The notes beneath the pieces are model-generated. The model was not told the origin of the DNA. It made no database searches and saw nothing but the letters and a program-made list of their open reading frames with translations. A stretch of 64,000 bases of DNA, taken from Thermosipho ferrireducens (GTDB lineage: Bacteria; Thermotogota; Thermotogae; Thermotogales; Fervidobacteriaceae). This document shows, one piece after another, positions 25,157 to 63,752 of this stretch. The stretch is taken from assembly GCF_017358165.1 (NCBI RefSeq), contig NZ_CP071446.1, positions 1,116,001 to 1,180,000 on the forward strand, given 5' to 3'. The position numbers were made by a program, and so were the translations under genes. Each line of letters begins with the position of its first letter. Within the stretch, counting starts at the first letter, position 1.

Positions 25157-25222
25157 ATGAATTTAGTTAATAATTATCTTTAAAACAAGAAAATGTTAAC
25201 ATTTTATTTGGGGGTGTTAGAA

Positions 25223-25474
25223 GTGAAAAGATATGCTTTTTGCTTTTTTATTTTTTTGCTTTTTATATTAAGTGGAGTTGGGTTTTCTGAAAAATTTTCT
25301 CTTTATAATTATTTGATAAATAGCAAAGTAAGTATTCTTAGAGAATGTGATGAAAGTTTAACAGAACCTGTTACATATGCTATTTGTGTAAGATATGAAG
25401 ATTCAGATGGATATTTAGATCAGAATTGTTTTGGAATTTGCACATCGTTCTGCGACACGATAAATAATTTCTGA
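25223..25474 (+). CDS. Exported Cys-rich protein, copy A, ending at an in-frame TGA
   Basis: As read to the first stop this is 83 residues. It has a hydrophobic N-terminal signal (RYAFCFFIFLLFILSGVGFS) and then 'SILRECDESLTEPVTYAIC', with cysteines spaced like a disulfide-rich domain. The homologue on the minus strand at 63.3-63.8 kb shares 'ILREC(D/N)ES(L/I)TEP' but runs on to a 'YPC' C-terminus. Here the same frame after the TGA still encodes that C-terminal half, so copy A looks interrupted by one nonsense codon or recoded. The GTG at 25223 follows GGGGGTG. It is the first gene of a pair with the beta-helix protein. Function is unknown. Confidence 0.65.
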   Translation: MKRYAFCFFIFLLFILSGVGFSEKFSLYNYLINSKVSILRECDESLTEPVTYAICVRYEDSDGYLDQNCFGICTSFCDTINNF

Positions 25475-25582
25475 GGAAAATTAGCCTGTAAGTCCAGCTG
25501 TCTGGGAGTTTGTTATAAACCTGAACGAAGATTATGTGTTGAGTATGATACTGTTACAGTATATCCATGTAGAGGAAACTAA
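25475..25582 (+). other. In-frame continuation of the Cys-rich protein after the TGA
   Basis: The frame runs 35 further codons to TAA, encoding 'GKLACKSSCLGVCYKPE' and ending 'YDTVTVYPCRGN'. This aligns with the minus-strand homologue ('GKIAYYACIASCHVACW' to 'ECKTIYPCNSNN'). The conserved cysteines and 'YPC' end show it was coding sequence until recently, or still is if the TGA is read through. Confidence 0.7.
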
Positions 25583-25595
25583 AGGGGGGAGATTT

Positions 25596-26510
25596 ATGGA
25601 AAATTTAAGAAGATGGTTGTTGCTTTTAATTGTATTTTTGATTACTGGTTTTACATTTTCTGAAACATTTATAGTTGAAAATGATCTTCAAAGAGTGATT
25701 AATACAGCAAAAGATGGGGATGTTTTAATATTAAATAATTCTTTTAGTGGAAAAATTGAAATTGTGGGTAAAAGATTGAAGATTGTTGGTAAAAATGAAT
25801 CTGTGGAATTATCTTTTGTCAGTAGAAATACAGAAAATATTTTTAACGAAAAACCTATAATATATTTGGAAGATGCAACGGTTACATTGGAAAATGTAAA
25901 GATAAATGCGTCGAACGTGGTTGGAATCGGAATTTTAAATTCTTCTGTTTATTTAAAAAATGTTACTATCGTATTGAGTAATGGTATAGGAATAGTTTCT
26001 GTTAGCGATGAGAAAAACGAAAGTTACGTGAAACTTGAAATGGTTGAAATTATGGCTAAAAAATACAAGAAAGTTTCAGGAAGAAATGTATCATTAATCT
26101 TCAATGGTGTAGGAGTTTTAGGTTCATATAACACAACTATTGTTGCAAATAATGTTGAGATTTTGGGAATGAAAAAGGGATTTATTTTAGAAAACACGGA
26201 GAGTTACATATTTAACTCCAGTTTTTCTGAAAATGAATTATGTTTAATAATTCTTTCTGGAAATCAAAACATAATAAATAACAAATTTGTGTTAAATGTT
26301 CAGGGCATTGTAGCAGCGAATGATTCTAAAGTTTCATTGGTAAATAATCATTTTGATGAGAATAATCAGGATATAGAATTGTTAACAGAAAGTTGTAATA
26401 GTTGTCCTAATACGAGAAAATTTACAGGGGTCTTAAAAGGTTATTCAAATGTTTCAGGCATCTTTAGCAATAAAACTAAATTTCCCGCTCATTTTTGGGA
26501 GGATATGTAA
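25596..26510 (+). CDS. Exported right-handed beta-helix protein, copy A, with CNSCP tail
   Basis: 304 residues with a signal peptide (LLLLIVFLITGFTFS). The mature start 'TFIVENDLQRVINTAKDGDV' is typical of pectin-lyase/NosD-like parallel beta-helix proteins. Repeats of about 20-25 residues follow, with alternating hydrophobics and many Asn ('NVKINASNVVGIGILNSSVYLKNV'). Near the C-terminus C267 and C270 form 'CNSCPNTRKFTGVLKGY', also found in the homologue at 62.3 kb ('CNSCPHSKQFIGNIEG'). No catalytic residues of polysaccharide lyases are evident, so binding or structure is as likely as catalysis. The ATG follows AAAGGGGGGAG. It lies 13 bp after the Cys-rich gene's final stop and is clearly co-transcribed. 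Confidence 0.82.
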   Translation: MENLRRWLLLLIVFLITGFTFSETFIVENDLQRVINTAKDGDVLILNNSFSGKIEIVGKRLKIVGKNESVELSFVSRNTENIFNEKPIIYLEDATVTLENVKINASNVVGIGILNSSVYLKNVTIVLSNGIGIVSVSDEKNESYVKLEMVEIMAKKYKKVSGRNVSLIFNGVGVLGSYNTTIVANNVEILGMKKGFILENTESYIFNSSFSENELCLIILSGNQNIINNKFVLNVQGIVAANDSKVSLVNNHFDENNQDIELLTESCNSCPNTRKFTGVLKGYSNVSGIFSNKTKFPAHFWEDM

Positions 26511-26557: not shown

Positions 26558-26803
26558 GTCATCATAATGAGTGCCAGCGACGAAGGATCTTATTTTACTA
26601 ATCTCGCCAACACTTGCCAACTTCGCTAATCGTGAGATTGCTCACCTTCCCACTTCTCAGAATGACTATTTTTTCTGTCATTCCGAACGTACGTGAGAAA
26701 TCTATTTTTTACCAGCTCTCGCTAATTTTGCTAACTCTCGCCAAAAACAAGATTCCTCACACTTCGGGTTCGGAATGACATAAGTAAGGGCCAACACTTG
26801 CCA
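26558..26803 (+). repeat. Mosaic of short direct and inverted repeats
   Basis: Four related units are visible: 26558-26590 (GTCAT to GAAGGATCT, forward), 26634-26666 (GAGATTGCTCAC to CAGAATGAC, inverted), 26677-26703 (GTCATTCCGAACG to GAGAAATCT, forward) and 26750-26779 (AGATTCCTCACAC to CGGAATGAC, inverted). An exact 14-bp direct repeat GCCAACACTTGCCA occurs at 26606 and 26790, with variants of CTCTCGCTAA and CTCGCCAA between. The region is less AT-rich than its surroundings and has no coding frame. The units resemble the widespread intergenic GTCATTCTGAGCG...GAAGGATCT repeats. Confidence 0.75.
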
Positions 26804-51527: not shown

Positions 51528-52058
51528 ATGAAATTTATAGAGAGTTTTATAATGAAGTATGTAAAAAGAGATAAAAAAGAATATTTAAAAAAAGTTGTTA
51601 CTAAACTTTCGGAGTTTTTAGAAAATGGTGTGAAATGTGTTATTCAACCTAATGAAAATTATGGACGGTTAAGATTAGAAATTTATGAGGACGAACATGA
51701 CAACGATCTGGTTTATTTTTCAGGATTGGCTCTGCCGGAAGAACCAATGGAATGGATTTTTGATACATCAGAATATAGAACTTTTTCAGAAAAATTAAGC
51801 CTTTCAAAATCGCTGATAACTAATGTAGAATTGGCAGAAATTCCAGAGAATGAAATTTTAACTGTAAGAAGACTTATTTTAAAAAATGATACAGCATACG
51901 TTATTGTAGATAAGGAAAACACCAGGAATATGAATAACAGAGAAATTGCAGTTGAAATATTAAATTATTTATTGAAGAACGAGTTTTTAGTTGAGGAATT
52001 CTCAATAGAAAATTATGAAATAGAGATAGAAGCGGAATTAACGGATTTTTTTCAGTAG
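51528..52058 (+). CDS. Unrecognised soluble protein
   Basis: 176 residues, acidic overall, with no signal or membrane segment. Predicted helices at the N-terminus (FIESFIMKYVKRDKKEYLKKVV) are followed by a mixed alpha/beta part. Features such as 'YGRLRLEIYEDEHDND' and 'LRKNDTAYVIVDKENTR'-like 'LILKNDTAYVIVDKEN' show alternating strands. No family or motif was recognised. The ATG follows TGGAAGGAGG. It lies between the CapD-like gene and a small membrane gene and is probably co-transcribed with both. Confidence 0.75.
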   Translation: MKFIESFIMKYVKRDKKEYLKKVVTKLSEFLENGVKCVIQPNENYGRLRLEIYEDEHDNDLVYFSGLALPEEPMEWIFDTSEYRTFSEKLSLSKSLITNVELAEIPENEILTVRRLILKNDTAYVIVDKENTRNMNNREIAVEILNYLLKNEFLVEEFSIENYEIEIEAELTDFFQ

Positions 52059-52075
52059 AGGAGGTGTTTATTGCA

Positions 52076-52357
52076 ATGTTTGGGGGATTACTTATTGCGG
52101 CTGGTATTTTGTTAATTCTTGCGGTATTTTTTTCTTTAACTTCTCCGTTCTGGATATTCATAGGATTTCTCATCACAGCTGCTGGCCTTGGAATGATGAT
52201 AAAGAAATTTCCATCAGGTATAGGGGCTACTATAGTTGGAATAATAGTAATTCTTACAGCTTTTGAATTTATCAATATAGGATTCTGGGAGTTTATATTA
52301 GTATTAATTGGCGCTGGATTAATAGAAGGCGGAATAAAAGTGTTAATTTCTTCATGA
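52076..52357 (+). CDS. Small membrane protein
   Basis: 93 residues with three hydrophobic segments, each with Gly-rich helices (GGLLIAAGILLILAVFF, FWIFIGFLITAAGLGMMI, ATIVGIIVILTAFEFI). The pattern resembles small DUF-type membrane proteins; the molecular role is unknown. The ATG at 52076 follows AGGAGGTG at about 10 bp; the GTG 12 bases upstream lies within that site. It is the last gene before a gap of about 180 bp. Confidence 0.75.
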   Translation: MFGGLLIAAGILLILAVFFSLTSPFWIFIGFLITAAGLGMMIKKFPSGIGATIVGIIVILTAFEFINIGFWEFILVLIGAGLIEGGIKVLISS

Positions 52358-52464
52358 TAAGCTATTTTTTATATGTCTTTAAGTATAAACACCTTTTGTG
52401 AATTTAAGATACCAATAGAATATTTCAATAGAACCATGGTCATGTTTTAATGGTTCAAATATTT

Positions 52465-52494
52465 TTGTATAAATTTCATATCATCAGATATGAT
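52465..52494 (+). promoter_or_regulatory. Candidate promoter of the MFS-wecB group
   Basis: TTGTAT (52465-52470), an 18-bp spacer and TATGAT (52489-52494). The inverted repeat TATCAT-CAGAT-ATGATA overlaps the -10, so it may be a regulator site. Confidence 0.45.
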
Positions 52495-52535
52495 ACAGTT
52501 TGGTTATGATAAAATTATTTTGAGGTGATTTAATT

Positions 52536-63335: not shown

Positions 63336-63752
63336 TCAATTATTGCTATTACAGGGATAAATTGTTTTACATTCTATTTTAAAACATTGATAATTTCCTG
63401 GAACCCAACAAGCTACATGACAAGAAGCTATGCATGCATAATATGCTATCTTCCCTTTAATCCTTGCAATCTCACAACCTGTAGTACAATGAGCCATACA
63501 TGTTGTGTCCATATGCCCGGGTATATATCTCTTTTCAGTACATATACATTGCTTTAATGGTTCAGTAATAGATTCATTGCATTCTCTTAAAATATTCGGC
63601 GGACTTTGATTATATTCTGTCAAGAGTAAAACAGATGTTTCTGATTTTTCAAAAAAAGTAACACTTTCATTCAAAACTGTGAGGTTTCCATAAGTTATTA
63701 TTACAAGAAAATTCATATATAAAACAAATATCATTTTTACAGATGCCTTCAT
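63336..63752 (-). CDS. Exported Cys-rich protein, copy B (intact)
   Basis: 138 residues with a signal-like N-terminus (KMIFVLYMNFLVIITYG). The mature part has twelve cysteines, in clusters 'ILRECNESITEP', 'QCIC', 'TTCMAHCTTGC', 'YYACIASCHVACW', 'QCFKIEC' and 'YPC'. The 'ILREC(D/N)ES(L/I)TEP' and 'IYPC' parts are shared with the interrupted copy A at 25.2 kb. No known Cys-rich family was recognised, and the even cysteine count fits disulfide bonds in a secreted protein. The ATG follows AAGGGATATTT. It precedes the beta-helix gene by 68 bp on the minus strand. Confidence 0.75.
   Translation of the reverse strand: MKASVKMIFVLYMNFLVIITYGNLTVLNESVTFFEKSETSVLLLTEYNQSPPNILRECNESITEPLKQCICTEKRYIPGHMDTTCMAHCTTGCEIARIKGKIAYYACIASCHVACWVPGNYQCFKIECKTIYPCNSNN

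What the first reader, a model, noticed from the sequence alone, without database searches (positions are those of the whole stretch)
25472..25474. In-frame TGA inside the Cys-rich protein of copy A
The frame after this TGA still encodes the conserved second half, ending 'YPC', as in the intact copy B. The TGA aligns roughly with a lysine in copy B, not a cysteine, so selenocysteine is unlikely. It may be a fresh nonsense mutation, a sequencing error or a read-through site. If read through, two product lengths would be made.
Basis: seen in the sequence. Interest (0 to 1): 0.5.

Follow-up and report, generated by a model that had tools for sequence, protein, structure and literature searches.

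The report
Nonsense mutation in small secreted protein
A heat-loving bacterium carries a recent-looking stop codon in the middle of one of its two copies of a small, cysteine-rich, probably secreted protein gene; its closest relatives have a tryptophan there, so this is most likely an ordinary loss-of-function mutation, though the little-known protein family it hits is worth a look.

Summary
The TGA at 25472-25474 is real and in frame, codon 84 of a 119-codon gene (25223-25582); its 35 downstream codons are open and conserved. In the two nearest orthologues the aligned codon is TGG, Trp. Synonymous changes dominate after the TGA (17.5 of 22.8 sites, against 8.5 of 82.2 nonsynonymous), so the gene was under protein-level selection until recently, or still is. 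No sign of UGA recoding: RF2 present, one ordinary tRNA-Trp, no UCA tRNA, UGA ends 21 of 59 long ORFs. Best reading: a recent Trp-to-stop allele. The stop falls in the loop between two predicted cysteine-bearing helices, so the short product lacks half the motif. The family (13 copies in 11 of 103 phylum genomes) is alpha-hairpinin-like and lies beside a beta-helix gene in 12 of 13 copies. Four of 13 copies look broken, at different places, while the partner genes found have no internal stop: a hint of a dispensable or costly gene, on a small sample.

The parts
25223..25582 (+). Cys-rich gene, copy A, interrupted by TGA; GTG start with GGGGGTG 25210-25216 upstream and a signal-peptide-like N terminus (both by eye), TAA 25580-25582
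   Evidence: family profile match E 2.6e-40 with 1 TGA inside
25472..25474 (+). in-frame TGA; aligned codon is TGG (Trp) in the orthologues of G008 and G010
25427..25513 (+). six-cysteine motif C-x3-C-x3-C-x11-C-x3-C-x3-C; the TGA lies in the x11 loop
   Evidence: helices predicted for the same stretch of copy B
25475..25579 (+). 35 conserved codons downstream of the TGA (second helix stretch, VYPC end)
25596..26510 (+). partner gene A, open: right-handed beta-helix protein with signal-peptide-like N terminus and its own GGGGGG ribosome site (by eye)
   Evidence: searched from 25578, start ATG 25596 by eye
63336..63752 (-). copy B of the Cys-rich gene, open, 138 aa
62317..63267 (-). partner gene B, beta-helix protein, open, 316 aa
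24749..24776 (+). terminator-like hairpin between the alkaline phosphatase gene and copy A
   Evidence: 2 terminator-like sites found, 0.6 expected in shuffles; the other, 25493-25506, is a weak 5-pair stem inside the gene after the TGA

Best explanation
The TGA is a recent nonsense mutation (one G-to-A transition in a Trp codon) in one of two paralogous copies of a small, probably exported protein gene. Translation stops after 83 codons. The product keeps the signal-peptide-like N terminus, the first strand and the first cysteine helix, but lacks the second helix whose three cysteines would staple to the first, so it should not fold and is probably degraded (inferred). The partner gene has its own ribosome site and can still be expressed (inferred). 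Copy B is only about 40% identical and may or may not cover the loss. Shown: the stop, the aligned Trp codon, constraint on both sides of the stop, an ordinary UGA-decoding apparatus. Inferred: loss of function, recency, the disulfide pattern, export.
For: Aligned codon TGG in both closest orthologues. Downstream 35 codons: Sd 17.5 of 22.8, Nd 8.5 of 82.2, at least as constrained as the mature part upstream (12.3 of 27.8 and 16.7 of 116.2); no second stop or frameshift. A rough Poisson bound puts the neutral share of the A-G010 divergence at no more than 0 to 0.37, depending on the assumed dS and earlier omega. RF2 over the family cut-off. One tRNA-Trp, anticodon CCA; no UCA anticodon at the 46 tRNA places; its anticodon stem has 5 pairs and it has G24 and A9 (read by eye), so none of the features that PMC13092985 (passages) names as favouring UGA reading. 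UGA ends 21 of 59 non-overlapping ORFs of 100 aa or more in the window. Other copies are broken independently: G008 by a 1-nt insertion just after the signal-peptide stretch, G051 by a frameshift there, G100 by a frameshift at the RECDES motif.
Against: Selection downstream of the stop is also what a still read-through gene would show. The genome is a finished single contig (1,982,543 bases), but no reads were seen, so a base error is not excluded. No second strain of this species was available, so whether the TGA is fixed is unknown.
Confidence: 0.72

Rival explanations
1. Leaky UGA: near-cognate tRNA-Trp reads the TGA at low level, so a little full-length protein is made and selection still acts on the second half.
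For: Trp is the aligned residue, and misreading of UGA by tRNA-Trp(CCA) is a usual leak (recalled). Downstream constraint. PMC7918605 (abstract and Results part 1 of 2 read) reports many in-frame stops in bacterial genes with dN/dS below 1.
Against: No feature favouring read-through: ordinary RF2 and tRNA-Trp, folding after the stop weaker than shuffles, and the same four bases UGAG end 9 of the 21 UGA-terminated ORFs here. [quoted passage not shown]
Confidence: 0.13
2. Base-calling or assembly error at one position.
For: A single transition in an otherwise open frame; no reads available to check.
Against: Finished one-contig genome, completeness 99.97%; a substitution, not a homopolymer indel; the same family is broken in two other one-contig genomes, G008 and G100, so a real loss is unsurprising.
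Confidence: 0.13
3. Dedicated recoding of UGA (selenocysteine, or genome-wide UGA read as Trp).
For: Only the in-frame UGA itself.
Against: No UCA-anticodon tRNA at the 46 tRNA places. The tRNA-Sec model does ring in this genome, 2 places over its cut-off, but ARAGORN reads those two as tRNA-Ser(tga) and tRNA-Leu(taa), and the same search rings in all 14 control genomes, over the cut-off in 5. RF2 present; UGA a common stop; aligned residue not Cys in any of 9 rows. SelA, SelB and SelD were not searched for.
Confidence: 0.02

Closest known systems
In-frame stop codons in otherwise constrained bacterial genes (Belinky et al. 2021, PMC7918605; abstract and Results part 1 of 2 read)
   Same: One nonsense codon, conserved reading after it, more synonymous than nonsynonymous change
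   Different: Here a single genome carries it; persistence across strains could not be tested
Plant alpha-hairpinins of the six-cysteine type, e.g. nigellin-1.1 (PDB 2nb2); antimicrobial helix-loop-helix peptides (PMC11591084, passages only)
   Same: C-x3-C-x3-C-loop-C-x3-C-x3-C spacing; the one PDB profile match up to E 10, E 0.0094 over 33 residues; predicted helical hairpin; a weak Foldseek hit to a vicilin leader peptide (E 6.8) and a weak VIA hit to the Ara h 1 leader (Z 2.8)
   Different: Bacterial and longer, with strands on both sides of the hairpin and further conserved cysteines; the match may be convergent or driven by cysteines; YfdX proteins, which are not alpha-hairpinins, score as well (Z 2.9); no activity known
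Right-handed beta-helix / NosD-like proteins (PF13229, TIGR04247), for the partner
   Same: Weak matches below cut-off (partner A to PF13229 E 2.6e-5; partner B to TIGR04247 E 2.3e-12); the model of partner A resembles an adhesin and polysaccharide lyases (best E 8.8e-5)
   Different: Identity 16% or less in the 50 rows listed; no catalytic residues were tested

Membership tests
Pseudogene by nonsense mutation | in-frame stop where orthologues have a sense codon | tested here: met
   TGA against TGG in G008 and G010
Pseudogene by nonsense mutation | relaxed selection after the stop arose | tested here: inconclusive
   downstream still strongly constrained; allows only a recent stop
Pseudogene by nonsense mutation | no full-length protein made | not testable with these tools
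   needs proteomics
Selenoprotein / UGA recoding | tRNA with anticodon UCA | tested here: not met
   none at the 46 tRNA places
Selenoprotein / UGA recoding | Cys in homologues at this position | tested here: not met
   9-row alignment: Trp in 3, Ile in 2, Tyr in 1, Ala in 1, gap in 2; none Cys
Selenoprotein / UGA recoding | SelA, SelB and SelD proteins | not tested
   no search made
Six-cysteine alpha-hairpinin | twin C-x3-C-x3-C motifs with a short loop | tested here: met
   12 of 12 full rows, copy A only across its stop; the 13th copy, G100, has Ala at both middle positions
Six-cysteine alpha-hairpinin | disulfide-stapled antiparallel helix pair | tested here: inconclusive
   two helices predicted, pLDDT 87-93 by blocks there, but pTM 0.39; paired loss of the middle Cys in G100 fits stapling; bonds not seen
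Six-cysteine alpha-hairpinin | common descent with the plant peptides | tested here: inconclusive
   profile E 0.0094; no Pfam family of note for 9 rows (only DUF3756, 2 rows, best E 0.27)

The most novel reading that the evidence does not exclude
The family is an undescribed two-gene cassette of Thermotogota that moves between genomic places: a secreted alpha-hairpinin-like peptide that is toxic or costly, plus a secreted beta-helix protein that protects from it or carries it. Lineages repeatedly break the peptide gene (stop here, frameshifts in G008, G051 and G100) and keep the partner, as with orphan immunity genes.
Probability: 0.12. Interest if true: 0.62.

Novelty: new member of a known kind. 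Interest (0 to 1): 0.33.

Why it matters
As a stop codon it is ordinary. What could matter is the gene it hits: a small, probably secreted six-cysteine protein of thermophilic Thermotogota with the cysteine spacing of plant antimicrobial hairpins, travelling with a beta-helix partner. If repeated independent breakage of one gene but not the other holds in a larger sample, its cost or function becomes directly testable.

Tried and rejected
Selenocysteine: rejected (Trp in the nearest orthologues, no UCA tRNA; the two tRNA-Sec matches over cut-off are Ser and Leu tRNAs). UGA read as Trp genome-wide: rejected on RF2, tRNA-Trp and UGA as a common stop, without a genome-wide survey of conserved Trp codons. 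Reinitiation or a split gene: no ATG, GTG or TTG in frame between the TGA and the natural stop (by eye). Structured read-through signal: four overlapping stretches folded, z-scores 0.57 to 1.53, weaker than shuffles. Relatives in viral contigs: 9 pattern matches, none a relative. Wider spread: genome contigs gave 4 loci, all titled as Thermotogota MAGs, but that scan used one motif and missed genomes that the genome search found. Phase variation: no repeat tract was noticed at the breaks shown, and the TGA is a substitution.

Synteny: six places compared (copies A and B of this genome, G008, G010, G004, G100) at E 1e-5. Apart from the cassette itself the only shared neighbours were three genes common to G008 and G010 (on the other side of the cassette in each) and one 37% match between an ABC-ATPase near copy B and a gene near G100's copy. 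The other six copies' flanks were not compared this way.

Fold searches of the Cys-rich model: Foldseek gave 2 matches up to E 10, none at 0.001; VIA aligned 7 chains, 3 with Z 2 or more, two of them YfdX. Breakage statistics: Fisher 4 of 13 against 0 of 12, p 0.096, not significant; by codon length 0.0076, or 0.022 for the three broken copies that have a partner; these tests were chosen after seeing the data. Against the 'partner kept' idea: G043's partner is shorter and lacks the C-x-x-C end, G011's partner has lost both those cysteines, and G051 C70 has no partner. A fragmentary match in G058 (E 6.9e-4, 1 TGA and 1 TAA inside) was not found by the profile search at E 0.01 and is not counted. 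Beta-helix hits in G045, G057, G051 C111 and G048 had no recognisable Cys-rich gene upstream.

Papers: search for Thermosipho + pseudogene + cysteine-rich found 0, hairpinin + Thermotog 0, Thermosipho melanesiensis + bacteriocin 1, a RiPP survey whose single passage names another locus tag, Tmel_0409, that I did not place. Listings only.

Full report
What is there. The window is bases 1116001-1180000 of a one-contig 1,982,543-base genome whose genus holds only this species among the genomes held; relatives are Thermotogota by the titles. At 25223-25582 lies a 119-codon reading frame with a GTG start, a signal-peptide-like N terminus (by eye; no signal-peptide program was run) and 11 cysteines, interrupted at codon 84 by TGA (25472-25474). 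It is followed by an open gene for a beta-helix protein (25596-26510). A second, open pair, copy B, lies on the minus strand at 63752-62317.

What aligns with the stop. Copy B is about 40% identical. Searches of 81 genomes and of the 103 phylum genomes held gave, in the second, 13 copies in 11 genomes. In the two nearest, G008 (1,915,238 bases, the size I recall for Thermosipho melanesiensis BI429) and G010 (a Thermosipho MAG by its title), the codon is TGG. The simplest history is Trp to stop by one transition. Over 9 rows the position is Trp in 3, Ile in 2, Tyr in 1, Ala in 1 and a gap in 2, so Trp itself is not needed across the family.

Selection. Against G010 the 35 codons after the TGA show 17.5 synonymous differences on 22.8 sites and 8.5 nonsynonymous on 82.2; the mature part before it shows 12.3 on 27.8 and 16.7 on 116.2. 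The second half was thus selected as protein for most of the divergence. A rough Poisson bound allows neutral evolution over at most 0 to 37% of the divergence, depending on assumptions. This is what a recent stop, or a stop that is still read through, would leave.

Decoding. RF2 is present. The 46 tRNA places (150 of 173 candidates were scored) include one tRNA-Trp with anticodon CCA and none with UCA. Its anticodon stem has five pairs and it carries G24 and A9 (read by eye), so it lacks the features that PMC13092985 (passages) links to UGA reading. UGA ends 21 of 59 mechanically chosen, non-overlapping ORFs of at least 100 codons in the window, 9 of them in the context UGAG as here. Folding after the stop is weaker than shuffles in the four stretches tried. 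No in-frame ATG, GTG or TTG follows the TGA before the natural stop (by eye).

The protein. The 12 rows scanned hold C-x3-C-x3-C, a loop of 8 to 14 residues, and C-x3-C-x3-C (three rows, L011, L012 and L024, have a further cysteine, so their loop can be counted in two ways). A model of copy B shows strand, helix, helix, strand over residues 66-131, with pLDDT 83-93 by blocks up to residue 130, though pTM is 0.39. The one PDB profile match, E 0.0094, is nigellin-1.1, a six-cysteine plant alpha-hairpinin (PMC11591084 legend). The weak fold hits include two seed leader peptides, 7uv3 and 7lxk, which I recall as alpha-hairpinin relatives, but also YfdX proteins at equal or higher Z. In G100 both middle cysteines are Ala, as expected if they pair. 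The TGA lies in the loop between the helices, so the short product would hold one helix whose three staple cysteines lack partners. The likeness to alpha-hairpinins is a lead, not membership.

The cassette. In 12 of the 13 copies a beta-helix gene directly follows the Cys-rich gene; G051 C70 lacks it. In the six places compared the flanks differ, save for three genes common to G008 and G010 and one 37% ABC-ATPase match. In G043 an ABC exporter-like gene follows the pair, and in G051 ABC-type genes lie within a few kb (both by eye). Four of 13 Cys-rich genes look broken: copy A by a stop, G008 by a 1-nt insertion after the signal-peptide stretch, G051 by a frameshift in the same region (a MAG, so assembly error is possible), G100 by a frameshift at the RECDES motif. 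The 15 beta-helix matches have no internal stop, nor has G100's, though G043's is shorter. The contrast is not significant by gene (p 0.096) and modest by length (0.0076, or 0.022 for the paired copies), and was looked for after the fact. Between G008 and G010 the Cys-rich gene has 6 nonsynonymous and 1 synonymous changes while the partner keeps omega 0.25, which fits relaxation in G008; seven changes are few, and the last 35 codons are identical.

Verdict. An ordinary, probably recent nonsense allele, in a gene family for which the two searches made found no paper and which may be lost repeatedly. Read-through and base error remain open at low odds.

Noticed in passing
window 26678-26781: A dispersed repeat with inverted ends (TCATTCCGAA...TTCGGAATGAC) sits after partner gene A; 63 matches in this genome at E 0.001, itself included, with only 40 of 161 candidates scored. 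It looks like a small non-coding mobile or palindromic repeat.
   Followed up: partly
L052:7600-7976 (G008): The orthologue in this one-contig genome is itself broken by one extra base after the signal-peptide stretch.
   Followed up: yes
L055:5430-6600 (G100): Cys-rich gene frameshifted at the RECDES motif; both middle cysteines of the twin motifs are Ala, a paired loss.
   Followed up: yes
L054 (G011), partner gene: The C-x-x-C near the partner's C terminus has lost both cysteines together (DYDSYQ), which suggests that they bond to each other.
   Followed up: no
L036:1631-3418 and L038:3078-4591: ABC exporter-like genes (by eye) near the Cys-rich gene in two MAGs of different families.
   Followed up: no
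L057, L058, L060: Three lone beta-helix relatives each follow a gene that looks like an MscS-type channel (by eye).
   Followed up: no
window 52058-52535: A 478-base gap without an ORF of 100 aa or more, content not examined.
   Followed up: no
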